Below are positions 13,110 to 59,818 of a stretch of DNA of 64,000 nucleotides, piece after piece (positions within the stretch are counted from its first letter, which is position 1; each line of letters starts with the position of its first letter). This stretch comes from an uncultured Bacteroidales bacterium. GTDB taxonomy: Bacteria > Bacteroidota > Bacteroidia > Bacteroidales > Bacteroidaceae. Location: the NCBI GenBank assembly GCA_945836755.1, contig CAMAMB010000003.1:1-64000 (forward strand), given 5' to 3'. A program made the position numbers and the translations under genes. A model generated the notes under the pieces. It was not told the origin of the DNA and searched no databases. It worked only from the letters and a program-made list of their open reading frames with translations.

Positions 13110-13380
13110 ACAAGCGATCCTGCCGTGCCTGCAAGCCTCCGCGCCGCGCGTAGAAGCATTCCGGTGAGTGACATTCGGCCCAATGTCAGGTTGCATTGGG
13201 CCGAATGCAACCTTGCATCCGCCCGAAAGCAAGGTGACATCCGCCCCAATGTTACTCGCGAGAAGGCTTCCGAGAATGGCGAGGAGCCTTTAAATAACGG
13301 CGGCATGCCTTCTACACATGGCGGAATACTATCTACACACGGCGGGACGCCTCTTGCGAATGGTGGAGAGGCGTCCCGCC
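13110..13380. repeat. Composite repeat element, copy 1
   Basis: Left part: three 21-bp units start at 13110, 13131 and 13152. Core: four 22-bp units start at 13168, 13190, 13212 and 13234, each a dyad with 7-base arms (for example GTTGCAT...ATGCAAC) around 8 bases. Right part: five 21-bp units start at 13265, 13286, 13307, 13328 and 13349, in opposite orientation to the left ones (compare GGCTTCT on the right with AGAAGC on the left). The core also folds as a 14-bp hairpin (13172-13185 with 13194-13207). A homologous copy is at 34021-34259. The rest of the 12,621-13,397 gap is operon leader and promoter. Confidence 0.85.
13341..13380 (-). terminator. Strong hairpin behind the GH127-like gene
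   Basis: GGCGGGACGCCTCT (13341-13354) and AGAGGCGTCCCGCC (13367-13380) form a perfect 14-bp stem with a 12-nt loop, 18 bp past the stop of the gene ending at 13398. No T-run follows. It overlaps the last 21-bp units of the composite repeat, so it may be part of that element rather than a dedicated terminator. Confidence 0.5.
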
Positions 13381-13397
13381 GTGGGTGAAGGGGGCGG

Positions 13398-14615
13398 CTA
13401 TTTCAGAGGTAGGTCTACGGTGCCGCGATCGGCGGTGGCGTATGGCCGGGCGCAGGTCGGGGGTGAGTCGGCAGAGGTCTCGGGCACCGTGGTCAGCGGG
13501 TAGAAGCCGTAGAAGTCGGCCTCCGCTTCAGCGTCAATGCCGAAGGGCGCGCGCAGAGGGTCGGTCCCGCTCGGGGCAGGCAGGGCAGCGAGGCCCCCGG
13601 GCAGGGCGTAGAGGAGTGGACCGCGTTGGAGACAGACCTCGTGACGGCCCGGAAGTTCCACGTAGCGTGCGGGCAGGGGCAGCCGCACGAATAGCTCGTC
13701 GCCCGTGTGCCAGGTGTGGTCTATGACCACGTAGCCCCTTCCGTCGGCGCGACACCAGTGTGGCAGCATCTCGTGGCCGTTGATGTAGATGGGGCACTCC
13801 GGCGAGCCCAGCAGGTCGGCCCATTGTCCGGCCGTCAATGCCTGCCACCCCGACCAGTCAGGCAGCCGCAGACAGAGGCGGAAGCGGGCGCCTGTGCGGG
13901 GCAGGTGCATGAAGCGCAGTTTGACATTGCCGTCGCGCGGCATGTAGGTGATCATGTCGAGCACGAAGTGGCGCCCGCCCCATGGCACACGGGCCGTGGC
14001 ATTGGTGTAGCCGTTGACGAAAAGGGTCGAGTCGCCTGTGGCCAGCATCATGCCCGGGTAGGCCAGCACGGTCTCGGCGGCGCTCCGCAGGTCGTTGTCG
14101 CGAGAGGCGGTGGCCGAGGCGGCCGGCCGGCCGGGAGTTGTCGCTGTGGCTGCGCTGTCGGCCGTGGCTGCGCGGTAGAGGGCATGCAGGGCCGCGTTGT
14201 AGACGCTGCGCTCGACTGCGTCCATCCAGACTGCCTGGCCGGTGAGCAGGAAGAGGCGGGCGAAGGTGGCGGCCTGCATCATGGCCGGCAGTCCCTGGGG
14301 GTCGGCAAAGGGGTCGCCGCCTCCCCCCACGGCGTTGCGCTGGTCCATGAAGGTGCGGGCTATCCGTGCTATCCGTTCGCGCAGGGCCAGGTGTGTGGAG
14401 TCGATGTTGAACGAGCGCACCTGGGCGTCAGGGCAGAGCGCGAAGGCCAGTTGGCGCGGGTCGGTGCCCTGGTAGCCCCATACCGACACACTGTCGGCCG
14501 GCACAAAGACCGGCGGCCGCGGCAGCCAGCCGGCGGGCGAGGGCGTCTGAGCCGTGGCGGGGAGGCCGGGGAGCGCAGCCCACACGAGGAGAATGAGGGG
14601 GAGAAAACGGATCAT
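13398..14615 (-). CDS. Secreted GH127-like protein, probably without the catalytic zinc/cysteine site
   Basis: 405 residues with a signal peptide (cleavage near ATAQ, residue 23). VWMDAVERSVYNAAL corresponds to the end of the GH127 (beta-L-arabinofuranosidase, DUF1680) helical barrel. Later LYVN-like LFVNGYTNA, LCLRLPDWS, IYINGHEM and VCLQRGPLLYAL match its beta-sandwich domains. Family members are about 600-650 residues, so much of the N-terminal barrel is missing. The stretch where the family has its C-x-CC zinc and nucleophile cysteines is replaced by an Ala/Thr-rich insert followed by DLRSAAETVLAYPG, with no cysteines. It is probably a non-enzymatic relic or binding protein. Assignment rests on the C-terminal motifs. 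Confidence 0.6.
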   Translation of the reverse strand: MIRFLPLILLVWAALPGLPATAQTPSPAGWLPRPPVFVPADSVSVWGYQGTDPRQLAFALCPDAQVRSFNIDSTHLALRERIARIARTFMDQRNAVGGGGDPFADPQGLPAMMQAATFARLFLLTGQAVWMDAVERSVYNAALHALYRAATADSAATATTPGRPAASATASRDNDLRSAAETVLAYPGMMLATGDSTLFVNGYTNATARVPWGGRHFVLDMITYMPRDGNVKLRFMHLPRTGARFRLCLRLPDWSGWQALTAGQWADLLGSPECPIYINGHEMLPHWCRADGRGYVVIDHTWHTGDELFVRLPLPARYVELPGRHEVCLQRGPLLYALPGGLAALPAPSGTDPLRAPFGIDAEAEADFYGFYPLTTVPETSADSPPTCARPYATADRGTVDLPLK

Positions 14616-14785
14616 GGTTTGTGAGATATGGAGACAGGGAGCAGCCCTGCCTCGCGGTGAGAGGTTGTGGCCGGCTCGGCGCGCGGCCGCCTGTGGCCTG
14701 TGTGGCGGGTGCTTGTGACCGGGGGTTTAGGGAGCGCCCAAGGGTTAAAGCCCTGCGCGCAGGGCTGAAACTTCTATTTTTTAGC

Positions 14786-14793
14786 TAATTTTG
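14786..14793 (+). promoter_or_regulatory. Promoter -7 box for the YqiA-like gene
   Basis: TAATTTTG fits TAnnTTTG and lies about 100 bp upstream of the ATG at 14897. Just before it is a GC-rich palindrome, AGCCCTGCGCGCAGGGCT, near 14749-14766, which could be a terminator for upstream transcription or an operator. Confidence 0.5.
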
Positions 14794-14896
14794 CGGCTGT
14801 CAGCCCTCCGCGCCATCCCGGTGGAGGCGGGTGGCCGGCTGTGAGCGCCTTCTCGCCTGCAGCAGGTGAAGAGGGGTTACCATCAATATACTGCCC

Positions 14897-15532
14897 ATGA
14901 AACTTATCTACTTCCACGGCTTTGCCTCCAGTGGGGCGAGCGGCACGGTGCAACTATTGCGCGACCTGCTGCCCTCTGCCGAGGTCATCGCTCCCGACAT
15001 ACCCGTCGACCCTCTCGAGGCGTTGGAGATGCTCCATGCCTTGGTCGAAGAGACACAGCCCGACCTGATCATCGGTACCAGTATGGGCGGCATGTACGCG
15101 CAGCAGATGCACGGCCACTTGCGGCTGTGTGTCAATCCCGCCTTCCAGATGTCGTCGCTCTCAAAAGCCATGCACACGGGGGAGCATAGGTGGCTGAACG
15201 GCCGCAAGGACAAGGCCAAGACCTTCCGCATCAGCGCCGAGACCATTCAGCACTTCCGCCAGATGGAGCGACGCCAGTTTGACGGCATCACCCCCGACGA
15301 CCGCGGCCTCTGCTACGGCCTCTTCGGGGTGAACGACGAGTTTGTCAATCCGCTCAACGCCTACAACACCTTCCGCAAGTATTACGACCACGCCGAGCGC
15401 TTCGACGGCGGCCATCAGCTCAACGAGAAAGTGTTGCGCAAGGTGGTGATGCCCTTAGTCAGGCAGCTGTTAGGCCCTGTCTACGAGGCAGCGTGCCGTC
15501 CGCCCCTGCCCGACTACATGAAGTATATGTAG
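14897..15532 (+). CDS. YqiA-like alpha/beta-hydrolase (small esterase)
   Basis: 211 residues. It starts with MKLIYFHGFASSG, has the nucleophile elbow G-T-S62-M-G-G, a likely acid D147 in GVNDEFV and the histidine H173 in FDGGHQL, so a complete Ser-Asp-His triad. Length and order fit the YqiA/YcfP (UPF0227) group, whose members cleave short acyl esters. It is a single gene, convergent with folA (19 bp between stops), so no pathway can be inferred from context. Confidence 0.8.
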   Translation: MKLIYFHGFASSGASGTVQLLRDLLPSAEVIAPDIPVDPLEALEMLHALVEETQPDLIIGTSMGGMYAQQMHGHLRLCVNPAFQMSSLSKAMHTGEHRWLNGRKDKAKTFRISAETIQHFRQMERRQFDGITPDDRGLCYGLFGVNDEFVNPLNAYNTFRKYYDHAERFDGGHQLNEKVLRKVVMPLVRQLLGPVYEAACRPPLPDYMKYM

Positions 15533-15551
15533 GCAGCGCCACGGCCGCGCG

Positions 15552-16052
15552 CTACGGCTGCGGTTTGCGTCTGAAGGTGCAGAAGCGGTATGCCTCGGCG
15601 TTACGCTCGTCGGGCTCGTGACACTCTTCAGCCACCAGCTGCCACTCCGCCTCGTCATAGGCCGGGAAGTAAGTATCGGCCTCGGGCGCGGTGGCCTCGA
15701 CGAAGGTCAGGCAAAGCTCGTGGGCCAGGGGCAGGGCCGCCGCGTAGACACTCTCGCCGCCAATGACAAAGACCAGCTCATCGGCCTCACAGGCAGCAAG
15801 AGCCGCCTCCATCGTGGGATAGACTTCAGCTCCCTCGGCCGTAAAGGCCGGGTTGCGGCTCACCACCACGTTTCGACGGTTGGGCAGGGCGCCCTTGGGG
15901 AGCGACTGGAACGTGCGCCGCCCCATGAGCACCGTGTGGCCCGTGGTCAGGGCCTTGAAGTGACGGAGGTCGGCAGGAAGATAGAAAAGCAACTCGCCGC
16001 GCAGCCCGATGGCCCGCCGGCGGTCTAACGCACATATCAGGGACAGTTTCAT
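15552..16052 (-). CDS. folA: Dihydrofolate reductase
   Basis: 166 residues. It shows the DHFR landmarks: LSLICALDRRRAIGLRGELLFYLPADLRHFKALT at the N-terminus (here in outline), the GRRTFQSLP NADPH loop, and FVIGGESVYAAAL. It reduces dihydrofolate to tetrahydrofolate with NADPH and thereby recycles the product of thymidylate synthase, encoded divergently 193 bp away. The ATG at 16052 is chosen because DHFR starts there; a longer frame upstream is not family-like. A TACCTTTG box ends only five bases before this ATG. Confidence 0.95.
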   Translation of the reverse strand: MKLSLICALDRRRAIGLRGELLFYLPADLRHFKALTTGHTVLMGRRTFQSLPKGALPNRRNVVVSRNPAFTAEGAEVYPTMEAALAACEADELVFVIGGESVYAAALPLAHELCLTFVEATAPEADTYFPAYDEAEWQLVAEECHEPDERNAEAYRFCTFRRKPQP

Positions 16053-16057
16053 GCCGC

Positions 16058-16065
16058 AAAGGTAC
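16058..16065 (-). promoter_or_regulatory. folA -7 promoter box, very close to the start codon
   Basis: On the minus strand TACCTTTG is followed by CGGC and then ATG. In this phylum transcription begins about five to seven bases after the box, which would put the first base of the mRNA at or within the start codon. This predicts a leaderless or nearly leaderless message. Confidence 0.55.
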
Positions 16066-16245
16066 ACATTTATGCCATACGGCGCTGTCTGCCCGCCCCT
16101 CCAAGGGCCGCCGACGCCCCCGGCCGCCCCGTCAGACCGACACACAGAGGGCTTCGCCCCTCGTCACCAACGCTTTATATATAGGTAGCGCCCTCACGCC
16201 AGCACCTGAGAGAGGCTACCCCGCATCACCCTACACACTCCACTC

Positions 16246-17040
16246 ATGCAACCCTATCTCGACCTGCTTCGCCGCATTCTGCAAGACGGCACCGTCAAGG
16301 GCGACCGCACCGGTACCGGCACGAAGAGCGTCTTCGGCCACCAGATGCGCTTCAACCTCGAAGACGGCTTCCCCCTCGTGACCACCAAGAAGCTCCATCT
16401 CAAATCCATCATCTACGAACTGCTATGGTTCTTGAAGGGCGATACGAACGTGAAGTATCTGCAAGACCACGGGGTGCGTATCTGGAACGAGTGGGCCGGT
16501 CCGGACGGCGACCTGGGCCATATCTACGGCTATCAGTGGCGCTCCTGGCCCGACTATCAGGGCGGCCACATCGACCAGATAAGCCGCGTGGTCGACGAGA
16601 TAAGGCATAACCCCGACTCGCGCCGCCTCCTCGTGTCGGCCTGGAACGTGGCCGACCTCGGCAGCATGCACCTGCCGCCCTGCCACCTGCTGTTCCAGTT
16701 TTACGTGGCCGACGGGCGCCTCTCGCTGCAACTATACCAGCGCTCGGCCGACACCTTCCTCGGAGTGCCGTTCAACATTGCCAGCTACGCCCTGTTGCTG
16801 CTCATGGTGGCTCAGGTGACGGGACTGAAGGCCGGCGACTTTGTGCACACCACCGGCGACACCCACCTCTATCTCGACCATATAGAGCAGGCCAAGCTGC
16901 AACTCACGCGCACGCCCCGCCCACTACCCGTCATGCGCCTCAACCCCGAGGTGACCGACCTCTTCGCCTTCGACTACGACGACTTCAGCCTCGAGAACTA
17001 CGACCCCTGGCCCCACATAGCCGCCAAAGTATCAGTATGA
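16246..17040 (+). CDS. thyA: Thymidylate synthase
   Basis: 264 residues, the normal ThyA length. The catalytic cysteine is C146 in [11 protein letters not shown]; the arginine-rich phosphate site (DRTGTGT, residues 20-26, and [11 protein letters not shown]) and the QRSAD and HLYLDH motifs are all present. It methylates dUMP to dTMP using methylene-tetrahydrofolate. Its stop overlaps the ATG of rsmF by four bases (ATGA), so the two are translationally coupled. Confidence 0.98.
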
Positions 17041-18437
17041 CGCCCCTGCCCATCGACTTTGTGGCCTCCATGCAGCGCCGGCTCGGCGCCACCGAGGCCG
17101 AAGCCCTCTGCCAAGCCCTCGACGCCCCGGCCGAAGGAGCCTGGCTGCGCTTCAACCCCCTCAAGACACAAGGCTACACAGCCGGCGAGGGAGTGGAAGC
17201 GACCCCCGTGCCCTGGTGTGCCACCGGACTGCGCCTCAGCCGCCGCCCCGCCTTCACGTACGACCCCCTGCTACACGCGGGCTGCTTCTACGTGCAGGAG
17301 GCCGCCTCCATGTTTGTGGAGCAAGCCTATCGCGTACTCAGCGCCCGCCTGTCGCCCCTCCGCCTGCTCGACCTCTGCGCCGCTCCCGGCGGCAAGTCGA
17401 CCCTCTGGCGCAGCATCCTGCCCGAAGGAAGCCTGCTCGTGGCCAACGAACCGGTGAGGCAGCGCGCCCAGATACTGCAGGAGAACCTCGCCAAGTGGGG
17501 ACATCCCGACGTGGTCTGCACCCAGGCCTACCCCGAGGAGTTTGCGAGCCTCGGCAGCTTCTTCGACGTGGTGGCCGCCGACGTGCCATGCTCGGGCGAA
17601 GGCATGTTCCGCAAGGACGAACGCGCCCGCAGCGAATGGAGCACCGAGGCCGTGGCCCGCTGTGCCGCCCGCCAGCGCCAAATCATAGCCGACGTGTGGC
17701 CGGCCCTGCGTCAGGGAGGCTTCCTCGTATACAGCACCTGCACCTTCAACCGCGAGGAAAATGAAGACAACGTGGCCCACATCTGTCAGACCCTCGGCGC
17801 CGAGACAGTACCGCTTGACGCCCCCACAGACTGGCACATAGAGGGCGACACCACCGGGCGCGGCCTCCACGTCAGCCATTTCTATCCCCACCGCACCGAG
17901 GGAGAAGGCTTCTTCATGGCCCTGCTGCGCAAGACGAGTGAGGCCCCGTCGCCCCGCACACCCCGCAAGGCAGCCTCCAAGCAGCGGACCAAGGAGCAGC
18001 CCGTCAAAGGCGCCCGCCAAGCCGCAGGATGGCTGCACGACCCCGACAGCTACCGCCTCTTCCAACCCACAGAGACACACCTGGCCGCCGTCAGCAAGGC
18101 ACACCACGAGGCCGTGGTCCGGCTCTGTGCCACCGTGAGGGCCCTCAGTGCCGGCGTGCTGCTGGCCGAAGCCAAGGGGCAGAAACTCATACCCTCACAG
18201 GCCCTCGCTCTCAGTACAGCGCTCCGGCCCGATGCCTTTGGGCGCGTCGAGCTCAGCCGGGAAGAAGCCCTGGCCTACCTCCACCGTGAAGCCCTCGTCT
18301 GCCCACCAACAGCGCCGAGGGGCTACGTGATGGCCTGCTACGACGGCCACCCCTTGGGCTTCATGAACAATCTCGGCACACGCGCCAACAACCTCTACCC
18401 GGCGGAGTGGCGCATACGCCACGAGCAGCGCGACTGA
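17037..18437 (+). CDS. rsmF: rRNA/tRNA cytosine-C5 methyltransferase, RsmF/NOL1/NOP2 type
   Basis: 466 residues. The SAM motif [10 protein letters not shown] (111-120) and both RCMT cysteines are present: C185 in [12 protein letters not shown] (release) and C235 in [11 protein letters not shown] (nucleophile). The C-terminal third contains a PUA-like RNA-binding region as in RsmF. A low-complexity linker rich in Pro/Lys/Arg (about 300-325) joins the two halves. It is cotranscribed with thyA by overlap. Confidence 0.92.
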
Positions 18438-18520
18438 CCGCTGAAGCCCCCGCCACCCCCGCCATAGGCTTCCATACCGGGCTGAGAGGGGGCTAAACGT
18501 ACTCTTTTGTGCCTCACGCT

Positions 18521-18550
18521 TTTTGTTTCAATATTTTAGCCTTACCTTTG
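18521..18550 (+). promoter_or_regulatory. Promoter of the amidase/MCE operon
   Basis: TTTTG (18521-18525) and TACCTTTG (18543-18550) match the -33 and -7 boxes of the Bacteroidetes primary sigma factor with a 17-bp spacer. The amidase ATG is 65 bp downstream. Confidence 0.7.
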
Positions 18551-18614
18551 CTGCCGTCAAGCAAAACTGCTTTGCGCGAGTGGGTTTTCAGGCCACTGTA
18601 TAGACATCCTCATC

Positions 18615-19949: not shown

Positions 19950-20867
19950 ATGAAAAAGGAAATCAAGATAGCGCTCACGGCCATTGTGACCCTCGTCCTC
20001 CTCTTCGTAGGTATCAACTTCCTGAAAGGCATCAACGTCTTTCAGTCCACCAACACCTACTACGTCAAGTTTGCCAATATCGGCGGCCTCGCCGTCTCCA
20101 ATCCCGTTTATGCCAATGGTTATCCTGTAGGCATCGTGCGCACCATCGACTACGACTACGGCACCGGCCGCCAGGTAGTGGTGGGCATCGAGTTGGACAA
20201 GGAGATGAAAGTGCCCGAGCAGACCCATGCCGAGCTGGAGGCCGAGCTGATGGGCGGCGTCAAGATGTCGTTGCTCTTAGGCCCTAATCCCACCCGCCAC
20301 GTAGCACCCGGCGACACCATCACCGGCGCCATGAAGACAGGGGCCATGTCGAAGGTCGAAGAGATGCTGCCCGCCCTCGAGGAAATGCTGCCCAAGCTCG
20401 ACAGCATACTCACCAACGTAAACCGTCTCACGGCCAGCCCGGCCCTCATGCAGACCCTCGAAAACACAGCAGCCATGACGGCTGAACTGAGAGAGGCTTC
20501 GGCCACCCTCAACACCATGCTCCGTAACGATCTGCCGCAGACCATGACGAGCCTCAAGCACACGGCCGCCAACGCCGAGCAGCTCAGCGCCAACCTCGCC
20601 GCACTCAACCTTGAGGCCACCCTGGCCGGGGTGGACGCCACACTCAAAAACGCCGAGGCCCTTACGGCCAAGATGGACAACACCGTGGGCATACTGCACA
20701 CCAAGCTCTCGTCGAAGGACAACACACTGGGGCTCTTCCTCAATGACCGTAGCGCCTACGACCACCTCAGCTCCACGCTCTCACACGCAGACTCCCTCAT
20801 GATAGACCTCAAGGCCCACCCCAAACGCTACGTACACTTCTCCGTCTTCGGAAAGAAGGACAAGTAG
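19950..20867 (+). CDS. MCE/MlaD-family lipid transport protein
   Basis: 305 residues. One N-terminal membrane anchor (about 7-25) is followed by an MCE domain (YYVKFANIGGLAVSNPVYANG... to about 115). The rest is helical and Ala/Thr/Leu-rich, probably a coiled coil spanning the periplasm. MlaD-type proteins form hexameric rings that carry phospholipids between membranes with an MlaE/MlaF ABC transporter; none is adjacent, so partners must be elsewhere. Adjacency to an amidase gene is common in Bacteroidetes. Confidence 0.9.
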   Translation: MKKEIKIALTAIVTLVLLFVGINFLKGINVFQSTNTYYVKFANIGGLAVSNPVYANGYPVGIVRTIDYDYGTGRQVVVGIELDKEMKVPEQTHAELEAELMGGVKMSLLLGPNPTRHVAPGDTITGAMKTGAMSKVEEMLPALEEMLPKLDSILTNVNRLTASPALMQTLENTAAMTAELREASATLNTMLRNDLPQTMTSLKHTAANAEQLSANLAALNLEATLAGVDATLKNAEALTAKMDNTVGILHTKLSSKDNTLGLFLNDRSAYDHLSSTLSHADSLMIDLKAHPKRYVHFSVFGKKDK

Positions 20868-28365: not shown

Positions 28366-28384
28366 GTATTACAATTTTTTTCGC

Positions 28385-28447
28385 GAGGCTTCCATCGGGG
28401 GCTGCGAGGCTTCCATCGGGGGCTGCGAGGCGTCAGCCGGCTGCTCC
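28385..28447. repeat. 21-bp array in the leader of the ABC operon
   Basis: Two identical 21-bp units begin GAGGCTTCCATCGGGGG at 28385 and 28406, and a diverged third is at 28427. The array lies between the promoter and the ABC ATPase gene. On the reverse strand it contains the AAGCCT core shared with other 21-bp arrays in this window. Nothing else is seen in 28102-28311. Confidence 0.85.
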
Positions 28448-29421: not shown

Positions 29422-29422
29422 T

Positions 29423-33792: not shown

Positions 33793-34449
33793 TTGCCCTT
33801 TATCAACATTGTGTCTATTCTTCTTCAATGTGGCTCCGCAGGTGTCCTCTCCCATAGGCCCTGCGGAGTTTTGGCGTCCGGCTCCGGGTGCTGCCGACCC
33901 GTCTGCCCGACCCTTCTAAGCCTTAGCCCCGTCCACGTCCTCCTCCCCGCCATCCCTCCCCTTCTCGAGGCTGTCAGCCCAACCATCTTCATCATCTTCC
34001 CAATCATCTCCGCTATTCCTGCAAGCCTCCCGGCTGCTCTTCGAAGCGTCCAATCCATATGTAGAAGCCTCCCGGCCATTTTTAGAAGCATTCCAGCGAG
34101 TGACATTCGGCCCGATGTCAGGTTGCATTGGGCCGAATGCCACCTTGCATCCGTCCGAAAGCAAGGTGACATCCGCCCCAATGTTACTCGCGCGAAGGCT
34201 TCTAAACACGGCGAGGCGCCTTTAAACAACGGCGAGACGCCTTCTGCGCATGGAGCGGAGGTTCGCGGCATCGGCGCCGGGGCTGCGGGCATGGGTCACG
34301 CGGCGCGGCGAAGCGGGAGAGACGCAGAGGTAGAAAATTTTTCTGCCATGCCGCCGTTTTCTGCGTCAATGGCAATCAAATCCTGGATGTATGGCCTCTT
34401 TTTGAGCCATATTCTTGGTGTGTTGTTCTGCGTGGTGGCTAAACTATAG
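33793..34449 (+). other. Stop-free in-frame continuation behind the outer-membrane barrel gene
   Basis: The reading frame of the barrel gene stays open for 218 codons after its TAG, to a second TAG at 34447. It crosses the whole of composite repeat copy 2. There is no start signal and no recognisable domain, so it is not called as a gene. In a genome this GC-rich, random stops are spaced only about 34 codons apart on average, which makes the openness worth noting. The remaining 34450-34494 holds only the cysK promoter region. Confidence 0.35.
34021..34259. repeat. Composite repeat element, copy 2
   Basis: Same layout as the copy at 13110-13380. Four left 21-bp units start at 34021, 34042, 34063 and 34084; the core has four 22-bp dyads starting at 34100, 34122, 34144 and 34166; three right 21-bp units start at 34197, 34218 and 34239 in inverted orientation. 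The core differs from copy 1 at only a few bases. One of them turns an A-U pair of the main hairpin into G-U, which keeps the stem in RNA. Confidence 0.85.
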
Positions 34450-39496: not shown

Positions 39497-39667
39497 TTAG
39501 GCGTTGGTCGGTGGCGGGTGTGGATGACGGAGCGGCTTTTGCTGTTTCTCGGTCGCGTTGTGGCGGTTGCCGAGCGGCTTTTGCTGTTCCTCGGTCGCGT
39601 CGTGGCGGTTGCCGAGCGGCTTTTGCTGTTCCTCAGCTGCGTCGTGGTGTTTTCTGAAAGCTTTCTC
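39497..39667 (-). pseudogene. In-frame 56-codon tail behind the stop of the GT92-like gene
   Basis: After the TAG at 39668-39670 the same frame reads EKAFRKHHDAAEE, then 14-residue repeats (QQKPLGNRHDATEE and variants) and PHPPPTNA before a TAA at 39497-39499. The TAG codon falls where the repeats have CAG (GAG-GAG-TAG versus GAG-GAA-CAG). The TAA lies four bases before the next ATG, normal operon spacing. The simplest reading is a tail cut off by one nonsense change; stop read-through is the alternative. Confidence 0.6.
39530..39655. repeat. Three 42-bp tandem repeats between two glycosyltransferase genes
   Basis: Units start at 39530, 39572 and 39614, each beginning GAGCGGCTTTTGCTGTT on the plus strand. 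The first two differ at three bases. A fourth, diverged unit at 39656-39697 overlaps the 3-prime end of the upstream gene. 42 bp is twice the 21-bp period seen elsewhere in the window. Confidence 0.9.
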
Positions 39668-40546
39668 CTACTCCTCGGCCACGTCGTTGAGGTCGTAGTA
39701 ATGGAAGTAGTCGAGGCTGAGGCTACGCACGGTGCCGCTGGCCCGGCCGCGGGCTTGTTTCTCGGCAAATTCTTCGAGCGACTTGACGGCGTAGTGGTTG
39801 ATGCGTGCGATGTCGAGCTGCGGTTCGCGGTCGCGGAAGTGGCGGCGTACGGGCCGTCCGGCCGGGTCGACGGCGTAGCCGTTGATGCGTGCGGCTTCGT
39901 GGCAGCCTATCATATTGTAGACGCGTCGCGGATTGACTATGCTCTTGACGTGACGGTTGACGGGGTGTTGGGGCAGGGCGTGGCGTTTGAAGCGTTGCAT
40001 CACGGTGCCTTCGGAGCGTGTTTGCCGGCCGCTGCTTCCGTAGACGAGCCAGTTGAGCTCGACGGCGGGGTAGTCTTCCAGCTCTTGGAGGAGGGCGGGC
40101 AGGTTGTGGTGTTTGAGGGGCACTATAAACTCGTCGATGTCGATAAAGGCGATCCAGCGGGCCTCATAGCGGTGGTGGCTGAGGCAGTCGTCGTAGGCGG
40201 CCAGCTGCATGCGGTGGCCGGGGAAGGGTTTGTAGTCAACGATGCCTGCGTCGATGTAGGGGGCGAGGATGCTGCGGGTGGAGTCGGTGCTGCCGTTGTC
40301 GTAGACGTAGAACTTCTCCACGCCCTGTCCGACGTGCCAGTCTATCCATTCCTTGAAGTAAGGTCCTTCGTCCTTGGCTATGGCGCACACTGCGAGGTAG
40401 TGGCGGGGTGCGGGGTGGTCGCGGCGCAGGTCTCTGCGTAGCCTGAGGGCATTGAGAAGGCCGTAGCGCAGGATGCCGCGCCAGCGGTTGCGGGCCATCT
40501 TGCAGGGAATGAGGCCTGCGAGTATTTCGGCATAGACTTTCTTCAT
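39668..40546 (-). CDS. GT92/GT2-like glycosyltransferase
   Basis: 292 residues. CAIAKDEGPYFKEWIDWHVGQGVEKFYVYDNGSTDST (in outline) and FIDIDEFIVP are the hallmarks of the GT92 (DUF23)-like group, with DxD in DID. HYAVKSLEEF near the C-terminus also fits. It starts 2 bp behind Stealth paralogue 4. The present C-terminus (DLNDVAEE) may be truncated: an in-frame, repeat-containing continuation follows the TAG. Confidence 0.85.
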   Translation of the reverse strand: MKKVYAEILAGLIPCKMARNRWRGILRYGLLNALRLRRDLRRDHPAPRHYLAVCAIAKDEGPYFKEWIDWHVGQGVEKFYVYDNGSTDSTRSILAPYIDAGIVDYKPFPGHRMQLAAYDDCLSHHRYEARWIAFIDIDEFIVPLKHHNLPALLQELEDYPAVELNWLVYGSSGRQTRSEGTVMQRFKRHALPQHPVNRHVKSIVNPRRVYNMIGCHEAARINGYAVDPAGRPVRRHFRDREPQLDIARINHYAVKSLEEFAEKQARGRASGTVRSLSLDYFHYYDLNDVAEE

Positions 40547-42621: not shown

Positions 42622-42818
42622 TGCAAATATTACAGCATAGTGAAGATTTTACGGGCCGTGCCTCAAACTTTTTTTTACTTTTCGGCTTTTCGCCTTTGCC
42701 CGGTCCTTCTCGTCGGCGGTCTGTGGTTATGGTCTGTGGCTTTCGCGGGTGGCGGTCCGGCCTGCTCCGGGGCTGCGTGATGCCCGGCGTTTCGGCTACA
42801 CTTATATGCCGCGAAACT

Positions 42819-42950
42819 TAGATGTACATGTAGTTTTTCCTGGATGTACATGTAGTTTTTCCTAGATGTACATGTAGTTTTTTCTGGATGTACATGTAGT
42901 TTTTTCTAGATGTACATGTAGTTTTTCCTGGATGTACATGTAGGAAGATT
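42819..42950. repeat. 22-bp TGTACATGTA tandem array (copy B)
   Basis: Six units of exactly 22 bp start at 42819, 42841, 42863, 42885, 42907 and 42929. Units alternate strictly between TAGATG and TGGATG at their start, and the first five have a T5-6CC/TC spacer. The core TACATGTA is a perfect palindrome. Between 42951 and 43029 nothing is recognised. Confidence 0.95.
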
Positions 42951-45762: not shown

Positions 45763-45877
45763 CAAACATTCTGCATATACGGCGACGCGCATAGTTAAAA
45801 AAGTGTGGTTGAGGCGGCGCGGCGATGCCCGGGCTGCCTGGCGGGCGTGGGGCAAAGGGGCGCGGGGTGAGCGGAAG

Positions 45878-45961
45878 GTTGGTCGTCGGTAGTGGAAGGG
45901 CAGTCGGCTTGAGCGGAAGGTTGGTCGTCGGTAGCGGAAGGGCATTCGGCTTGAGCGGAAG
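45878..45961. repeat. Two 42-bp (four 21-bp) repeats behind sbcC
   Basis: On the minus strand the units start with CTTCCGCT at 45961, 45940, 45919 and 45898 and a partial unit follows at 45877. Two alternating 21-bp versions make a 42-bp repeat. In the frame of sbcC, past its stop, they read LPLKPNA-LPLPTTN twice. This frame stays open for 102 codons to a TGA that overlaps the protease start codon. Confidence 0.85.
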
Positions 45962-45970
45962 GGGTGGGGC

Positions 45971-52545: not shown

Positions 52546-52711
52546 GGCCGCGCAGGCCTCACCCATAGCCTCAGAGGTACAAGTCGTCGCCTTAGACGAG
52601 CCAAGTGAAGGCACAAAGAGCATATTTCCCCCCTTTTCATCGAATAAACAAGGCTATGCCGTACGCTCTGACTGACGGTGCAGCCTCGCTTCATATATAT
52701 GTGGGAATACT

Positions 52712-52799
52712 TAGATGTACATGTAGTTTTTCTTAGATGTACATGTAGTTTTTTCTAGATGTACATGTAGTTTTTCCTGGATGTACATGTAGGGAAAAT
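52712..52799. repeat. 22-bp TGTACATGTA tandem array (copy C)
   Basis: Four units of 22 bp start at 52712, 52734, 52756 and 52778. Three begin TAG, the last TGG and is followed by GGGAAAAT, like the last unit of copy B. Between 52546-52711 nothing else is recognised. 52800-53103 has no gene but holds nested inverted repeats GAAGATTTT/AAAATCTTC (53023-53031, 53065-53073) and AAGCAATT/AATTGCTT (53042-53049, 53090-53097). Confidence 0.9.
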
Positions 52800-53135: not shown

Positions 53136-53140
53136 CATCA

Positions 53141-53325: not shown

Positions 53326-53446
53326 TCTTTGTGCGCCTCGCCCGCGCCCCGACATCGGCCCCGGGCCGCCTAAGTAGAAGTGCACCCCGGGGAGCAGCGT
53401 GTGGAATATGCCGCCCCACACGGCGGTGTAAATCATATATTTATTA

Positions 53447-53454
53447 TATCTTTG
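53447..53454 (+). promoter_or_regulatory. Promoter -7 box of the YeiH-type gene
   Basis: TATCTTTG fits TAnnTTTG in an AT-rich island, 133 bp before the ATG at 53588. Confidence 0.6.
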
Positions 53455-53587
53455 CGCGCGTTTTGTCAGATACCGTCCTGCGAGGCCGGGCAGCCGCGCC
53501 CCTGCAGACGTAGGCCGCCAAGGCTCAGAGCGCCCCGAAACGCCCGCGGCCCAATTATCCACCACTACTTATAGCTTGCCACAAGCC

Positions 53588-54667: not shown

Positions 54668-54692
54668 GACCTCCACACGATACATTTACCCC

Positions 54693-55229
54693 ATGTTAGA
54701 CCTCTTCATCGTCATACTTTTAGCGTGGGCCATCTTCAGCGGATGGCGCGCCGGCTTGCTTAAAGAGCTCATCTCCACGACCGGCTTCGTCGTGGGCCTC
54801 TTCATCGCCGCCACCTTCTATTCCACCCTGGGCTCATACCTGGCCGTCAACGGCAGTGAGACCAACATGTTTACCAGCATAGTGGCCTTCCTGCTGCTAT
54901 GGATCATCGTGCCCATCTCCCTCGGTCTGGCTGCCAACCTCCTGACCAAGGCCCTCAAGGGCATGAAGCTCGGCCTGCCCAACAGCCTGCTGGGAGCCGG
55001 TGTCAGCGTGGCTAAGTTTCTGCTGCTGCTGAGCTGCGTGTTCAACGCCATGACCGCCCTCGGCATCATGAACGAAGAACGCACCGCCGAGTCGAAGCTC
55101 TACCGCCCCGTCAGCGCCGTGGTAGGGGCCTTCTTCGACGAAGAGCCTGCCGCGGGAGGCGCCATGGAAGCCTCTGATGATGAAGAAGCAGGCGACACCA
55201 TCTGGGTGGACGTGAGCAAGAAACAATGA
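54693..55229 (+). CDS. CvpA-family membrane protein
   Basis: 178 residues with four membrane helices (DLFIVILLAWAIFSGWRAGLLKELIS is the classical CvpA opening) and an acidic C-terminal tail. CvpA proteins affect envelope homeostasis and colicin V release; the biochemical role is unclear. Confidence 0.88.
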   Translation: MLDLFIVILLAWAIFSGWRAGLLKELISTTGFVVGLFIAATFYSTLGSYLAVNGSETNMFTSIVAFLLLWIIVPISLGLAANLLTKALKGMKLGLPNSLLGAGVSVAKFLLLLSCVFNAMTALGIMNEERTAESKLYRPVSAVVGAFFDEEPAAGGAMEASDDEEAGDTIWVDVSKKQ

Positions 55230-55256
55230 CCGCAGCAGGGCGGCGCGCCTGCAGCT

Positions 55257-55340
55257 GAGGCGCAACGGAATGCACATGCCGGCGCAGCGCAATGGCAGGC
55301 AGACGTAGCGGAATGCACATTCGGACATAGCGGATTGCCC
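55257..55340. repeat. Degenerate 21-bp array between cvpA and sufB
   Basis: Four diverged units start at 55257, 55278, 55299 and 55320, sharing an A-CGGAATGC-like core that drifts by one or two bases. The frame of cvpA stays open through it after the TGA. Weaker than the other arrays. Confidence 0.5.
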
Positions 55341-55378
55341 CACCCTTACCTCCATCCCCCCCCTCACACTTTATCACC

Positions 55379-56821
55379 ATGGCCGACAACGACATAGCAA
55401 GGCAGTTTGCCGAAAAACAATACGAGTACGGTTTCACCACCGACGTACATACCGAGATCATAGAGCGTGGCCTCAACGAGGACATCATTCGCCTGATTTC
55501 CGCCAAGAAGGAAGAGCCCGACTGGATGCTTGACTTCCGTCTGAGAGCCTATCGCCACTGGCTCACCATGGAGACCCCGGACTGGGCGCACGTCAACCTG
55601 CCGCCCTTAGACTATCAGGCCATCTCCTACTACGCCGACCCCACGAAGAAACAACGCGACGAAGGGAAAAAGGAAATAGACCCCGAGCTGCTCAAAACCT
55701 TCGACAAACTGGGCATCCCCCTCGAAGAGCGAATGCAGCTGGCCGGCGTGGCCGTGGACGCCGTCATGGACTCCGTCAGCGTGAAGACCACCTTCAAGGA
55801 AAAGCTCCAGGAAAAAGGCATCATCTTCTGCTCCATCAGCGAAGCGGTGAGAGAAAACCCCGAGCTGGTCAAGAAATATCTCGGCACGGTGGTCAGCTAC
55901 CGTGACAACTTCTTCGCCGCCCTCAACTCGGCCGTCTTCAGCGACGGAAGCTTCGTCTACATACCCAAAGGCGTGCGCTGCCCCATGGAACTGTCGACGT
56001 ACTTCCGCATCAACGCCCGCAACACCGGCCAGTTCGAGCGCACCCTCATCGTATGCGACGACGGCGGCTACGTGAGCTACCTCGAAGGATGTACAGCCCC
56101 CATGCGCGACGAGAACCAGCTCCACGCGGCCATCGTAGAGATTGTGGTCAACACCGACGCCGAGGTCAAATATTCTACCGTGCAGAACTGGTATCCGGGC
56201 GACAAGGAAGGCCGCGGCGGAGTATACAACCTCGTGACCAAACGCGGCCAGCTGCGAGGCCGGAACGCCAAGCTCTCATGGACACAGGTGGAGACAGGCA
56301 GCGCCATCACCTGGAAATATCCCTCGTGCGTGCTCATGGGCGAGGGGTCGCAGGCAGAATTTTACAGCGTGGCCGTGACCAACAATTATCAGGAGGCAGA
56401 CACAGGCACAAAGATGATACACCTCGCCCCGCATACCCGCAGCACCATCATCTCCAAGGGCATCTCGGCCGGGCATAGCCAGAACTCCTACCGAGGCCTT
56501 GTCAGAATAGGCGCCAAGGCCGACGGGGCACGCAACTACTCGTCGTGCGACTCGCTGCTGCTGGGCGACAAGTGCGGGGCACATACCTTCCCCTACCTCG
56601 ACGTGGCCAACAACAACTCCACCGTAGAACACGAAGCCACCACCTCTAAGATTTCGGAGGACCAGCTGCTCTACTGCAACCAGCGAGGCATCCCGACCGA
56701 AGACGCCGTGGGCCTCATAGTGGGAGGATACGCCCGCGAGGTCATCAACAAGCTGCCCATGGAATTTGCCGTAGAGGCCACCAAGCTGCTCAGCGTCTCG
56801 CTCGAAGGCTCTGTGGGCTAA
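55379..56821 (+). CDS. sufB: Fe-S assembly scaffold SufB
   Basis: 480 residues, full length. [35 protein letters not shown] and [22 protein letters not shown] (in outline) are conserved SufB blocks, and the cysteines in EGCTAP and SSCDSLL match positions needed for cluster building. It assembles Fe-S clusters with SufC and SufD. Neither is next to it: a tandem repeat array and an SLC13 transporter follow. The frame continues open for 97 codons after the TAA. Confidence 0.95.
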
Positions 56822-56848
56822 GACTCGGCGGCATGGCGCGGCGACAAC

Positions 56849-57010
56849 CCTTCACGCCTGGCAGTTAAGCCTTCACGCCGGGCAGTTAATCCTTCACGCC
56901 TGGCAGTTAATCCTTCATGCCTGGCAGCTACGCCTTCACGCCTGGCAGTTAAGCCTTCACGCCTGGCAGTTAAGCCTTCACGCCGGGCAGTTAATCCTTC
57001 ACGCCTGGCC
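56849..57010. repeat. 21-bp tandem array behind sufB
   Basis: Seven full 21-bp units start at 56849, 56870, 56891, 56912, 56933, 56954 and 56975 and a partial one at 56996. The unit begins CCTTCACGCCTGGCAGTTAA. In the frame of sufB, past its TAA, they read as heptads PSRLAVK/N. That frame is open to a TAA at 57113, four bases before the next ATG. The AAG-CCT junction recurs in other arrays. Confidence 0.95.
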
Positions 57011-57119
57011 TATACTTCTCCACGCCTGGCTGCTGTCGTTTCATGGCGCGGCCGCGAAACCAACGCGCATATACATTTCACACACATAACCCCAACCCCA
57101 TCAAATCTACTTTAAAGAG

Positions 57120-59054
57120 ATGCACTCCATGACATCGCTACTGCTCTCACAGCTCGGCGGACTCTGGACGCAGATGTTCGATTATTTGGCCTCGCCCGAA
57201 GGGCAGGTGGTCACCGTGCTCGTCATTTTCGGCCTTACCATCGTGGCCTTCATCGCCGATAAGGTGCGTTCAGACATTGTCGCCCTCTCGTCGCTTGCCC
57301 TTCTGCTCGTGACCAACGTGCTTACCCCCTCCGAGGCGCTGGCCGGCTTTTCGAATTCGGCCGTGGTCATGATGATCGGCCTCTTCGTCGTGGGCGGCGC
57401 AGTGTTCCAGACCGGTCTGGCCAAGATTATCAGCGGCCGCCTCTTGAAGCTGGCCGGCACGAATGAGGTGAAGCTGTTCTTCCTCGTCATGCTCGTCACC
57501 GCCGTGGTGGCCGCCTTCGTGAGCAACACCGGCACCGTGGCCCTGCTGCTCCCCATCATTTTGGCCATGGCCAAGACCGCCGGCATCAGTCCTGCAAAGC
57601 TGATGATGCCACTTGCCTTCGCCAGTTCCATGGGTGGCATCCTGACCCTGATAGGCACGCCCCCCAACCTCATCGTCGACGGCTACCTCCGCGACAACGG
57701 CCGTGACGGCTTTGCCTTCTTCGACTTCCTGCCCATCGGCATCATCTGCCTCAGCGTGGGCCTCTTGCTGCTCTATCCCCTCTGCCGTATCTTCATGAGC
57801 AAGAAGGGCAAAGACACCATTGACGAGGGCGCCGCCGAAGACATAGCCTCCCTCCTTCACGAGTACCATATCGACAACTTCGTCTTCCGCCTTCAGGCCC
57901 CGTCGGGAAAGACGTCCCTCATCGCCGGACGTACGGTGGGCGAGCTTGACGTGCGGCGCCACTACGGTGTCAACATACTCGAGGTGCGCCGCGCCAATCG
58001 CACCGTCTTCAGCAGCAGCATACAGGAACCCGTCAGCACCTCCACCATCTTCCATCCCGGCGACACACTCTACGTGCTCGGCCAGCGCAGCAAGGTGGAT
58101 GCCTTCGCCGCAGAGTACGGCCTCACCGTCTTCGAAGACGAAGAGACCGACGGAAAAGCCAAACTCGACTTCTACGAAATAGGCCTCGCCGAGGTGCTCA
58201 TCTCCCCCGAGAGCGCGCTGATTAACCGCCCGCTACGCAAGGCTAACTTCAAGGAACGTTACAACGTGAGCGTGTTGGCCATCAAGCGGTCGGGCAAGTA
58301 TATCTTCGAAGACGTGCTCGAGTCTGTCATCAAGCCGGGCGATATGCTCCTCGTGCATGGCTACTGGAAGGGCATAGAGAGCATGAACAAGAAGAACCGC
58401 GAGTGGATAGTCATCGGCTCACCCAACAAAGACGAGGAAAGCGTGGCCCTCGACCACAAAGCCCCCCTCGCCGCCTTCATCATGGCCGCCATGGTGGTGT
58501 GCATGGTCTTCGCCGACTACATCGGCGTCAAGCCCGTGGCCTCCGTCATTATCGCCGGCCTCTTGATGGTGCTCACCGGCTGTGTGCGCAGCGTCGACGG
58601 CGCTTACAAGATGATAGGCTGGGAGAGCATCGTCCTCATTGCCGCCATGATGCCCATGAGCACCGCCCTCTCCAAGACCGGCATCTCTGAATGGATTGCC
58701 ACCACCCTTGTACAGAACCTCCATGTCTACGGGCCTATTGCCGCCCTTGCCGGGGTATACGTGGTGACCTCCGTTCTCTCTACCTTCATCAGCAATTCAG
58801 CCACCGCCATCCTCGTGGCACCCATCGCCTGGGCCGCTGCCGAGCAGTTAGGCGTTTCGCCCACGCCCTTCATGATGGCCGCTGCCGTAGCAGCGTCCGC
58901 CTGCTTCGCCACTCCTATCTGCACCCCGCCCAACGCCATGGTCATGAACGCAGGCCATTACAACTTCATGGATTACGTGAAGGTCGGCGTGCCTCTTCAG
59001 CTCATCATGGGAATAGTGGCCATTCTCACCATCCCCCTCTTCTTCCCCTTCTAA
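57120..59054 (+). CDS. SLC13/DASS-family transporter with two RCK_C (TrkA-C) domains
   Basis: 644 residues. Two membrane blocks (about 20-245 and 455-644) carry the family's substrate loops SNTGTVALLLP and TLIGTPPNLIVDG in the first half and SNSATAILVAP and ATPICTPPNAMV in the second. Between them are two TrkA-C domains (about 260-345 and 355-440) that bind ligands or nucleotides and may gate transport. Members carry dicarboxylates, sulfate or other anions with Na+. It is followed 29 bp later by a small outer-membrane protein gene. Confidence 0.9.
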   Translation: MHSMTSLLLSQLGGLWTQMFDYLASPEGQVVTVLVIFGLTIVAFIADKVRSDIVALSSLALLLVTNVLTPSEALAGFSNSAVVMMIGLFVVGGAVFQTGLAKIISGRLLKLAGTNEVKLFFLVMLVTAVVAAFVSNTGTVALLLPIILAMAKTAGISPAKLMMPLAFASSMGGILTLIGTPPNLIVDGYLRDNGRDGFAFFDFLPIGIICLSVGLLLLYPLCRIFMSKKGKDTIDEGAAEDIASLLHEYHIDNFVFRLQAPSGKTSLIAGRTVGELDVRRHYGVNILEVRRANRTVFSSSIQEPVSTSTIFHPGDTLYVLGQRSKVDAFAAEYGLTVFEDEETDGKAKLDFYEIGLAEVLISPESALINRPLRKANFKERYNVSVLAIKRSGKYIFEDVLESVIKPGDMLLVHGYWKGIESMNKKNREWIVIGSPNKDEESVALDHKAPLAAFIMAAMVVCMVFADYIGVKPVASVIIAGLLMVLTGCVRSVDGAYKMIGWESIVLIAAMMPMSTALSKTGISEWIATTLVQNLHVYGPIAALAGVYVVTSVLSTFISNSATAILVAPIAWAAAEQLGVSPTPFMMAAAVAASACFATPICTPPNAMVMNAGHYNFMDYVKVGVPLQLIMGIVAILTIPLFFPF

Positions 59055-59083
59055 ACCTTCCACCAATCTCACAGACACATCTT

Positions 59084-59707
59084 ATGAAACGCATGCACAG
59101 ACTTATCGTCCTGCTCGCCCTCTGCCTCACCGTCGGCATGGGCGCACAGGCACAGGGCCTGAAGTTTGGCCTCAGCGCAGGCATGAACTTCAATAAGCTC
59201 CACTTCAGCGGCAACCGCACCGACATGACCAATCAGGCTGTACACTCCTCCAACAGGGCGGGATGGTACATCGGTCCCAAGCTCACCCTCAGCACCGGTC
59301 TCGGACTGGGCGCCGACGCTGCCATCGAGTATACAGAACGCTATCTCGACATCAACGGAGAAACTGAGACCTACCGCACCTTTGAAGTGCCCGTCAACGT
59401 GCGCTACGGCATAGGTCTCGGCAGCCTTGCCAAGATTTACGCCACCACCGGACCGCAGTTCGGCTTCGCCCTCGGCCACATGAGCTGGAGCAACCTCGGC
59501 ACAGGCACCAACTTCAGCAAGCGCCACATGAATACCACCTGGAACGTCGGCGCGGGGCTTACCCTCCTCAGCCGCTTCGACGTCAGCGTAGGCTACAACA
59601 TAGCCTTCGGCAGCATCGGCAAGGCATCGCGCCACGCCGGCAACGACGACTATCAGCTCAAGTATAAGACCAACAGCTTCCGTGTCAGCGTGGCCTACCT
59701 CTTCTAA
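59084..59707 (+). CDS. Small outer-membrane beta-barrel protein
   Basis: 207 residues. Signal peptide (LIVLLALCLTVGMGAQAQ), then GLKFGLSAGMNFNKLHFSG and eight or so amphipathic strands ending in the C-terminal aromatic strand NSFRVSVAYLF. This is the porin-family/PorT-like outer_membrane beta-barrel group (OMP_b-brl). The ATG at 59084 begins the signal peptide; the longer frame is a shadow of the transporter gene. Confidence 0.87.
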   Translation: MKRMHRLIVLLALCLTVGMGAQAQGLKFGLSAGMNFNKLHFSGNRTDMTNQAVHSSNRAGWYIGPKLTLSTGLGLGADAAIEYTERYLDINGETETYRTFEVPVNVRYGIGLGSLAKIYATTGPQFGFALGHMSWSNLGTGTNFSKRHMNTTWNVGAGLTLLSRFDVSVGYNIAFGSIGKASRHAGNDDYQLKYKTNSFRVSVAYLF

Positions 59708-59734
59708 GCTGCGCGCCCCCGTCCCCGCCCTTTT

Positions 59735-59818
59735 CAGCCTGCGCTCTGACCCTTTCCGCCTGCGCTCTGACCCTTTAAGCCTGCGCCGCAGAACCTTCTA
59801 CCGGCGCCGCCCCTGCTC
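59735..59818. repeat. 21-bp array behind the small outer-membrane protein gene
   Basis: Four units start at 59735, 59756, 59777 and 59798. The first two share GCCTGCGCTCTGACCCTTT and the others diverge. In the frame of the upstream gene they read with the Pro-Ala in the same phase as the Lys-Pro of other arrays, but TGA codons interrupt the first two units. 59819-59917 contains only AT-rich promoter-proximal sequence. Confidence 0.85.

What the first reader, a model, noticed from the sequence alone, without database searches (positions are those of the whole stretch)
13110..59818. A family of intergenic arrays with an exact 21-bp (or 42-bp) period at seven or more loci
Arrays at 13110-13380, 28385-28447, 34021-34259, 39530-39697, 45878-45961, 56849-57010 and 59735-59818 (and weaker at 55257-55340) keep a 21-bp period although their units differ in sequence. 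Several share an AAGCC core. 21 bp is two helical turns and also seven codons. Unrelated microsatellites would not be expected to choose the same period, so a common mechanism or function is likely: phased protein-binding sites, heptapeptide-coding tails, or a mobile repeat that grows in 21-bp steps. I know of no named element that fits.
Basis: seen in the sequence. Interest (0 to 1): 0.82.

Follow-up and report, generated by a model that had tools for sequence, protein, structure and literature searches.

The report
Two-helical-turn repeat arrays between genes
In the sampled part of an uncultured bacterium related to Alloprevotella, medium-length repeats between genes recur every 21 or 22 bases, about two turns of the DNA helix, although the repeated sequences differ from place to place, which suggests regularly spaced landing sites for a still unknown DNA-binding protein.

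Summary
In 842 kb of this genome (37%), 71 of 71 intergenic arrays with unit 12-40 bp have period 21 (20) or 22 (51); at lags 5-99 only multiples and sums of 21 and 22 occur. They form 21-24 sequence families.

Part of the 21-bp arrays share an AAGCCTTCC-like site; its copies sit 21 bp apart (67 pairs; 1 at 20, 3 at 22) and keep register when the site flips strand. Many 22-bp units are quasi-palindromes. Same-genus species keep the spacer AGTTTTTCCT with another core. Positions are not conserved. Relatives also use other periods, yet 21-23 leads in other Bacteroidota samples (34 of 61).

Best explanation: dispersed rows of dimer-binding sites two helical turns apart, so that neighbours bind one DNA face. 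Protein and purpose are unknown; a neutral slippage origin remains a serious rival. Closest known: BrickBuilt and REP/BIME. Heptapeptide coding is rejected for the 22-bp class. New variant of a known kind.

The parts
13112..13167 (+). Left 21-bp sites of composite element A: AAGC cores at 13112, 13133, 13154, exactly 21 bp apart
13168..13255 (.). Four 22-bp quasi-palindromic units (88 bp) at the centre of composite element A
   Evidence: dispersed copies
13256..13380 (-). Right 21-bp sites of composite A in inverted orientation (GCTT or CCTT cores at 13266, 13287, 13308)
34023..34099 (+). Left 21-bp sites of composite element B: AAGC cores at 34023, 34044, 34065, 34086
34100..34187 (.). Four 22-bp quasi-palindromic units of composite element B
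34188..34259 (-). Right 21-bp sites of composite B, inverted (GCTT or CCTT cores at 34198, 34219, 34240)
28376..28447 (-). 21-bp array (AAGCCTCGCAGC on the minus strand), between divergent genes
39517..39697 (.). 42-bp (2 x 21) array between two minus-strand genes; its right part overlaps the predicted 3' end of gene 39668-40546
45854..45970 (.). 42-bp (2 x 21) array
55257..55340 (.). Weak array; true lags 43 and 22 rather than 21
56835..57030 (+). 21-bp array, about 8 units, core AAGCCTTCACGCC
59721..59791 (+). 21-bp array
1..65 (-). 22-bp array of the ATGTACAT / AGTTTTTCCT family, cut by the window start
42811..42950 (+). 22-bp array, palindromic core CTAGATGTACATGTAG, spacer TTTTTC, six cores
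52693..52797 (+). 22-bp array of the same family, four cores

Best explanation
The arrays are rows of DNA-binding sites held two helical turns apart. Each unit holds one site of roughly 10-16 bp, often a quasi-palindrome as expected for a dimer, plus a spacer that brings the unit up to 21 or 22 bp, the smallest whole number of turns that a site wider than one turn allows. Neighbouring dimers would then lie on one face of the DNA and could bind cooperatively or bridge to other arrays. Families spread between intergenic places by an unidentified copying process and are replaced quickly between species. SHOWN in the sampled sequence: the exclusive 21/22 period, intergenic restriction, exact spacing of the recurrent 21-bp site, register kept through strand flips, quasi-palindromic 22-bp units, dispersed families that differ between species, no positional conservation. 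INFERRED: that a protein binds, that it is dimeric, that cooperativity is what fixes the spacing, and what the bound array does (perhaps nucleoid folding, or insulation between convergent genes).
For: Only 21, 22 and their sums occur among intergenic lags 5-99. 78 arrays in 21 families at a similarity of 14 of 20 (99.9th percentile of 3000 permuted pairs) and 24 at 15 (reached by none of the 3000), so the period is not the trace of one recent ancestor. GAAGCCTTC-like sites (at most 2 mismatches) pair at 21 bp 67 times, at 20 once, at 22 three times; AAGCMTTCC-like sites (at most 1 mismatch) 19 times at 21 and never at 17-20 or 22-26. Among 64 adjacent pairs at 21 the spacer identity averages 0.61, and 19 have under 50%. 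Opposite-strand sites also fall in register: head-to-head 19, 107 and 128 (distances seen at least 3 times), tail-to-tail 23, 44, 65 and 111 (at least twice). ATGTACAT cores: 91 of 94 neighbours at 22, the rest at 44 or 66; 127 of 141 intergenic. Units palindromic at permutation p < 0.05 in 11 of 23 lag-22 arrays of the first 464 kb, 7 of the 11 from the ATGTACAT family; outside this genome in 18 of 47 arrays of lag 21-23 against 1 of 21 of other lags (Fisher p 0.004), and without loci chosen by the linker 9 of 26 against 1 of 20 (p 0.03). Linker spacing in the fetched G009 and G049 stretches: 22 bp 22 and 80 times, 21 bp 1 and 19 times, 23 bp 0 and 1 times. Period 21-23 makes up 34 of 61 intergenic arrays of unit 12-40 in other Bacteroidota samples. 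22-type arrays are over-represented between convergent genes: 15 of 49 such gaps against 22 of 387 others.
Against: No binding protein was identified and no binding was measured. 21-bp units are not palindromic in this genome (0 of 14 at p < 0.05). The higher identity of the site (0.81) over the spacer (0.61) in the 64 pairs is partly by construction, since both members had to match the site; 9 of the 19 pairs with diverged spacers are junctions with the 22-bp block, where another spacer is expected; and one site pattern (GAAGCNTYC) gives 4 pairs at 20 bp and 3 at 41 beside 33 at 21. The 107, 111 and 128 distances come largely from copies of one composite element. Array positions are not conserved (2 of 19 orthologous gene sides against 6 of 73 background), which speaks against fixed operators. 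21 or more families in one genome are awkward for a single sequence-specific protein. Exclusivity is particular to this genome: G049 and G009 also have lags such as 16, 24 and 32, and 80 kb of the complete genome G004 had no 21, 22 or 42 at all. Y1 transposase (PF01797) and rve integrase (PF00665) were not found in this 85%-complete genome, so the spread is unexplained. I lowered this confidence from 0.48 to 0.45 when rechecking these points.
Confidence: 0.45

Rival explanations
1. Neutral minisatellites. Quasi-palindromes provoke replication slippage and template switching, and the geometry of that process favours steps of two helical turns; the arrays have no function and are merely tolerated between genes.
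For: Loops of both orientations inside quasi-palindromes, which I recall as a mark of template switching; no positional conservation; over-representation between convergent genes, where insertions should do least harm. 6 of 24 coding regions lie at 21 or its multiples, a small number that does not exclude a weak mutational preference.
Against: In coding DNA lag 21 itself is not the leading lag (2 of 24, against 3 at 15 and 2 at 9), although in-frame 21-bp duplications would be tolerated. The 21-bp site shows almost no drift to 20 or 22; neutral decay should add indels (inference).
Confidence: 0.27
2. Miniature mobile elements of the BrickBuilt or REP/BIME kind: non-autonomous repeats moved by a transposase encoded elsewhere, whose unit length reflects the transposase footprint.
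For: Composite element in dispersed places of this genome (34 blastn matches, the query itself and matches on both strands of one place included; 28 rows, both orientations, aligned) and in 0 of 40 relatives; composites with a 21-plus-22 layout but other sequences in G049; BrickBuilt is a Bacteroidales precedent with a 23-nt unit (PMC4596501, passages seen).
Against: No sharp ends: 21-bp sites fade outward. No Y1_Tnp or rve (other transposase families were not searched). No Pfam family matched more than 2 of 100 flanking proteins. No exact pattern hits in viral contigs and no match of the 22-bp array in phage records.
Confidence: 0.2
3. RNA-level function: tandem hairpins ending transcripts or feeding RNase III, whose double-stranded RNA step is also about two turns (recalled).
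For: Some units can form short stems with a T-rich run beside them; 22-type arrays are over-represented at convergent gene ends.
Against: T-run orientation relative to co-directional genes is even, 3 sense and 4 antisense; divergent gaps carry 22-type arrays too (9 of 59); 21-bp units of this genome are no more palindromic than permutations; no Rfam family at gathering score in the window.
Confidence: 0.07
4. Heptapeptide-coding tails.
For: 21 bp is seven codons (arithmetic only); one array (39530) runs into the predicted 3' end of a gene.
Against: The commoner period is 22; the arrays are intergenic by my gene calls; lag 21 is 2 of 24 coding regions.
Confidence: 0.01

Closest known systems
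BrickBuilt MITE minisatellite of Porphyromonas gingivalis (PMC4596501; passages seen, abstract among them)
   Same: Bacteroidales; intergenic; tandem unit of about two helical turns (23 nt) without spacers; 19 elements in one strain; host range narrow (BLASTx hits in P. gulae); units imperfect, with conserved and variable positions.
   Different: One family with leader, tail and terminal inverted repeats like those of IS elements. Here the period is 21 and 22, one genome holds 21-24 sequence families, sites flip in register, no sharp ends were seen, and the core differs between species while a spacer is kept. Sequences were not compared.
REP / BIME (PMC2817692; passages seen, abstract among them)
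   Same: Intergenic, palindromic, abundant, species-specific; in BIMEs the REPs are regularly spaced and in alternating orientation; known binding sites of several proteins.
   Different: REPs are tied to RAYT (Y1) transposases, not found here; in the passage on Stenotrophomonas the inter-REP segments vary in length between clusters, whereas here the pitch is one or two fixed values over all families.
Plasmid iterons (recalled, no call)
   Same: Direct repeats of about 19-22 bp spaced in whole helical turns for cooperative protein binding.
   Different: Iterons sit at a replication origin beside rep; these are dispersed chromosomal arrays next to ordinary genes.
Heptamer repeat arrays (PMC4679880, PMC6344855; passages seen)
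   Same: Intergenic tandem arrays known in Bacteroidota and many other bacteria.
   Different: Lags 7 and 14 are absent from the sampled intergenic DNA of this genome.

Membership tests
BrickBuilt MITE | 23-nt tandem unit | tested here: not met
   Only 21, 22 and sums of them in the sample
BrickBuilt MITE | Intergenic, multicopy, narrow host range | tested here: met
   Composite element: and 0 of 40 relatives; the 22-bp family is found in 3 of 57 other genus genomes
BrickBuilt MITE | Leader and tail with IS-like terminal inverted repeats | tested here: inconclusive
   Composite is flanked by inverted 21-bp sites that fade outward; no sharp end in 28 aligned rows; target duplications were not examined
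REP/BIME | Abundant intergenic palindromes | tested here: met
   22-bp class
REP/BIME | Cognate RAYT (Y1 transposase) in the genome | tested here: not met
   PF01797: 0 matches at E <= 0.001 in an 85%-complete genome; control rings in 5 of 14 genomes
REP/BIME | REPs regularly spaced within a BIME, in alternating orientation | tested here: inconclusive
   Pitch is regular and some sites flip, but most arrays listed are head-to-tail
Iteron array | Located at a replication origin next to a rep gene | tested here: not met
   Arrays are dispersed and 100 flanking proteins show no family in more than 2 members
CRISPR array | Repeats separated by unique spacers of about 20-50 bp (recalled) | tested here: not met
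   Units of 21-22 bp abut
Heptamer SSR | Period 7 | tested here: not met
   No intergenic lag 7 or 14
Phased dimer-binding array (works like) | A protein binds cooperatively in a spacing-dependent way | not testable with these tools
   Needs bench work

The most novel reading that the evidence does not exclude
Many Bacteroidota, and Alloprevotella relatives above all, carry a chromosome-wide nucleoprotein lattice: dispersed intergenic arrays whose only invariant is a two-turn pitch, bound by a fast-evolving dimeric protein whose recognised palindrome is swapped from species to species while pitch and spacer stay, much as satellite DNA and its binding proteins evolve in eukaryotes.
Probability: 0.23. 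Interest if true: 0.85.

Novelty: new variant of a known kind. Interest (0 to 1): 0.6.

Why it matters
A rule that fixes repeat pitch at two DNA turns regardless of sequence would point to an undescribed DNA-binding system in bacteria of the gut and rumen (the source of many of the related records). It would give a direct route to the protein, and would place minisatellites such as BrickBuilt in a wider class. It also warns that such arrays break assemblies.

Tried and rejected
Heptapeptide coding: rejected for the 22-bp class. Intrinsic terminators: T-run orientation even, 3 against 4. RAYT/REP and rve transposons: PF01797 and PF00665 not found; other transposase families were not searched. 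A tie to a gene class: 100 of 103 eligible flanking proteins scanned (eligible: gene of 240-2400 bp not touching a stretch end), 185 Pfam families, none in more than 2 members. Conserved operator positions: 2 of 19 against 6 of 73, p 0.67; the 19 rows count some gaps twice (once from each neighbouring gene), and one orthologous gap (G009 L201, G000 L189) that holds an array in one species and a composite element in the other was scored as no array by the threshold. Phage or plasmid origin: no hits; one plasmid hit at 73% identity, not followed. Simple A-tract curvature: lags 10 and 11 do not occur. Compensatory changes in the arms of the 22-bp units: looked at in the rows; the variable position pairs only in part, so no claim is made. 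Core pattern AAGCMTYCCCGCC in 16 units of the 21-type (15 unclustered at threshold 15 plus one of a pair): 6 have p < 0.05, combined p 3e-6, but the pattern was chosen after seeing some of them, so it is descriptive only. In one search a longer pattern was significant for 13110, 34021 and 56849 only (3 of 8).

Rows dropped: intergenic gaps under 50 bp (under 60); loci under 5 kb (2 of 20 order loci, 4 of 20 phylum loci, 1 of 80 SufB loci); segments with N; arrays explained by a shorter period; blastn hits under 90 bp; gene sides at stretch ends. The set from L144-L173 was chosen by the linker pattern, so counts without it are given too. Gene calls are my own hexamer model, not a published caller.

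Literature: seven searches; I saw no description of a 21/22-bp rule in Bacteroidota among the listed papers. Only open-licence papers are held. PMC4596501, PMC4679880, PMC5771137, PMC6344855 and PMC2817692 were seen as passages; all other papers only as search listings.

Full report
WHERE IT IS. The window is G000:C3:1-64000 of a 2.25-Mb, 94-contig, 84.8% complete genome, 61% G+C. A SufB tree places it beside Alloprevotella records in Prevotellaceae, nearest row L021 at 84% identity, with the closest forks only moderately supported.

I extended the test to 842,445 bp of the genome (window plus 40 stretches). Intergenic regions with at least 23 matches in 30 bp occur at lag 21 (20), 22 (51), 42 (18), 44 (37), 63 (11), 66 (18), 84 (14), 88 (12), and at sums of 21 and 22 (43, 64, 65, 85, 87; 1-2 each), and at no other lag from 5 to 99. 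Counting each array once by its primary period from 12 to 40, 71 of 71 are 21 or 22. Three resamples of the intergenic DNA of the first 464 kb gave none at those lags. Coding DNA gave 24 regions, all at multiples of three, 2 at lag 21 and 6 at 21, 42, 63 or 84. Some stretches were taken from contigs known to hold arrays, so density may be inflated.

ANATOMY, 21-BP CLASS. Composite elements at 13110-13380 and 34021-34259 show it best. AAGC cores stand at 13112, 13133, 13154 and at 34023, 34044, 34065, 34086, each step 21; then come four 22-bp units (88 bp); then inverted cores at 13266, 13287, 13308 and 34198, 34219, 34240. Over the sampled intergenic DNA, GAAGCCTTC-like sites (at most 2 mismatches) pair at 21 bp 67 times, at 20 once, at 22 and 23 three times each; one shuffle gives 0-2 at 20-23. 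AAGCMTTCC (at most 1 mismatch) gives 19 at 21 and none at the other distances from 17 to 26. GAAGCNTYC gives 33 at 21 and 4 at 20, the only sign of drift (all). In 64 adjacent pairs at 21, spacer identity averages 0.61 and 19 pairs are under 50%; the site's 0.81 is partly by construction, and 9 of the 19 are junctions with the 22-bp block. Sites on opposite strands also fall on the lattice: head-to-head 19, 107 and 128, tail-to-tail 23, 44, 65 and 111 (distances with fewer than 3 and 2 cases were not listed); 107 is 19 plus the four 22-bp units, and the longer distances come largely from copies of one element.

ANATOMY, 22-BP CLASS. The largest family has core CTAGATGTACATGTAG and spacer TTTTTC. 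ATGTACAT is intergenic in 127 of 141 cases and neighbours lie 22 bp apart in 91 of 94. In the first 464 kb 11 of 23 lag-22 arrays have a unit more palindromic than permutations at p < 0.05 (7 of the 11 from this family), and 0 of 14 lag-21 arrays do. Loops inside the palindromes occur in both orientations.

HOW MANY FAMILIES. 78 arrays cluster into 21 families at 14 of 20 identities (the 99.9th percentile of permuted pairs, so a few links may be chance) and 24 at 15 (reached by none of 3000). The largest, of 33, mixes 27 lag-22 and 6 lag-21 arrays. Several unclustered 21-bp units still share an AAGCCTYCNCGCC-like core (6 of 16 at p < 0.05; pattern chosen after seeing some of them).

OTHER SPECIES. 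The composite of this genome is in 0 of 40 relatives (24 of the same genus) at E <= 0.001. The 22-bp family query finds 3 of 57 other genus genomes. Their arrays keep the spacer AGTTTTTCCT but have another core: ATGCGCAT or GGTGCGCTCC in G049, CATGCCTATG in G052, GTGTATAGAG and variants in G009. Searching for the spacer twice with any 12 bases between finds 12 of 58 genus genomes including the window's own (212 matches there; two of the twelve have a single match), while the reversed control has 1 in all; outside the genus 15 of 148 genomes have 1-2 matches, with 0-3 per genome in the control. G049 has composites of a 21-bp CCTTCC array joined to a 22-bp array. Relatives are less strict: G049 and G009 also have lags such as 16, 24 and 32, and of nine genus genomes sampled at 28-80 kb each, eight have an intergenic lag of 21, 22 or 42 and one (G004, complete, 80 kb) has none.

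BREADTH. With one caller, period 21-23 among intergenic arrays of unit 12-40 is 12 of 24 in random genus stretches, 16 of 29 in SufB loci of 79 Bacteroidales, 4 of 5 in other families of the order, 2 of 3 in other orders and classes of the phylum, together 34 of 61 (binomial p 3e-18 against even use of 29 periods; even use is a crude null). E. coli (150 kb, 24 kb intergenic) gave 1 array, at 18, and 50 kb of pSymB none: too little to say whether other phyla differ. Outside this genome units of period 21-23 are palindromic at p <= 0.05 in 18 of 47 arrays against 1 of 21 of other periods; leaving out loci chosen by the linker, 9 of 26 against 1 of 20.

PLACEMENT. 22-bp arrays lie in 15 of 49 convergent gaps against 22 of 387 others (p 1e-6; 2e-4 after correction for gap length); 21-bp arrays show no such bias. 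Flanking genes are ordinary. Positions are not conserved: next to orthologous genes, 2 of 19 gap sides with an array in G009 or G049 have one in G000, against 6 of 73 without (a few gaps are counted from both sides, and one composite was missed by the threshold).

READING. A pitch of two turns that holds over 21 or more sequence families, with an exactly spaced site and register kept through inversions, is what rows of same-face binding sites would give; the absence of 10-11 bp arrays and a palindrome wider than one turn would explain why two turns is the smallest step (inference). A mutational origin is the main rival; it must explain why lag 21 does not lead in coding DNA and why the spaced sites hardly drift to 20 or 22. 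Turnover of positions and cores says that the arrays behave like dispersed satellites, not like operators of given genes. Which protein binds, and to what end, is unknown. Contig ends inside arrays (contig lengths) show that arrays break this assembly, so copy numbers are lower bounds.

KNOWN WORK. BrickBuilt in P. gingivalis (PMC4596501, passages) is the nearest case: 19 intergenic elements with a 23-nt tandem unit inside a MITE, and mention of other 41-, 23- and 22-nt repeats. REP/BIME (PMC2817692, passages) resembles it in palindromes, regular spacing and species-specificity but is tied to RAYT, not found here. I did not compare sequences with BrickBuilt.

Noticed in passing
G000 contig ends (e.g. 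C3:79202-79255 of 79259, C5:3-34, C12 both ends, C14:47318-47349 of 47352, C24, C31 and C33 starts); window 1-65: Several contigs of this assembly end inside or next to 22-bp arrays, so the arrays break the assembly and copy numbers are underestimates.
   Followed up: partly
L163 1443-1536; composite copies, e.g. window 13168-13211: Small loops inside quasi-palindromes occur in both orientations within one array (TTCGGCCCAA and TTGGGCCGAA in the composite).
   Followed up: partly
G049 L214, L216, L224, L232; G009 L131, L213: Same-genus genomes also carry intergenic arrays with lags 16, 24, 32, 40 (8-bp period), absent from the sample of the window's genome.
   Followed up: no
window 4488-4535 and 20352-20401: Two stretches with 21-bp self-similarity inside predicted genes, unlike the intergenic arrays.
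   Followed up: no
window 60018-63998: A long open frame of about 1,327 codons that runs to the window end; not identified.
   Followed up: no
H1 (Borrelia turicatae plasmid record, 130236-130351): The only plasmid record that matches the 22-bp array, at 73% identity; probably chance in A+T-rich DNA.
   Followed up: no
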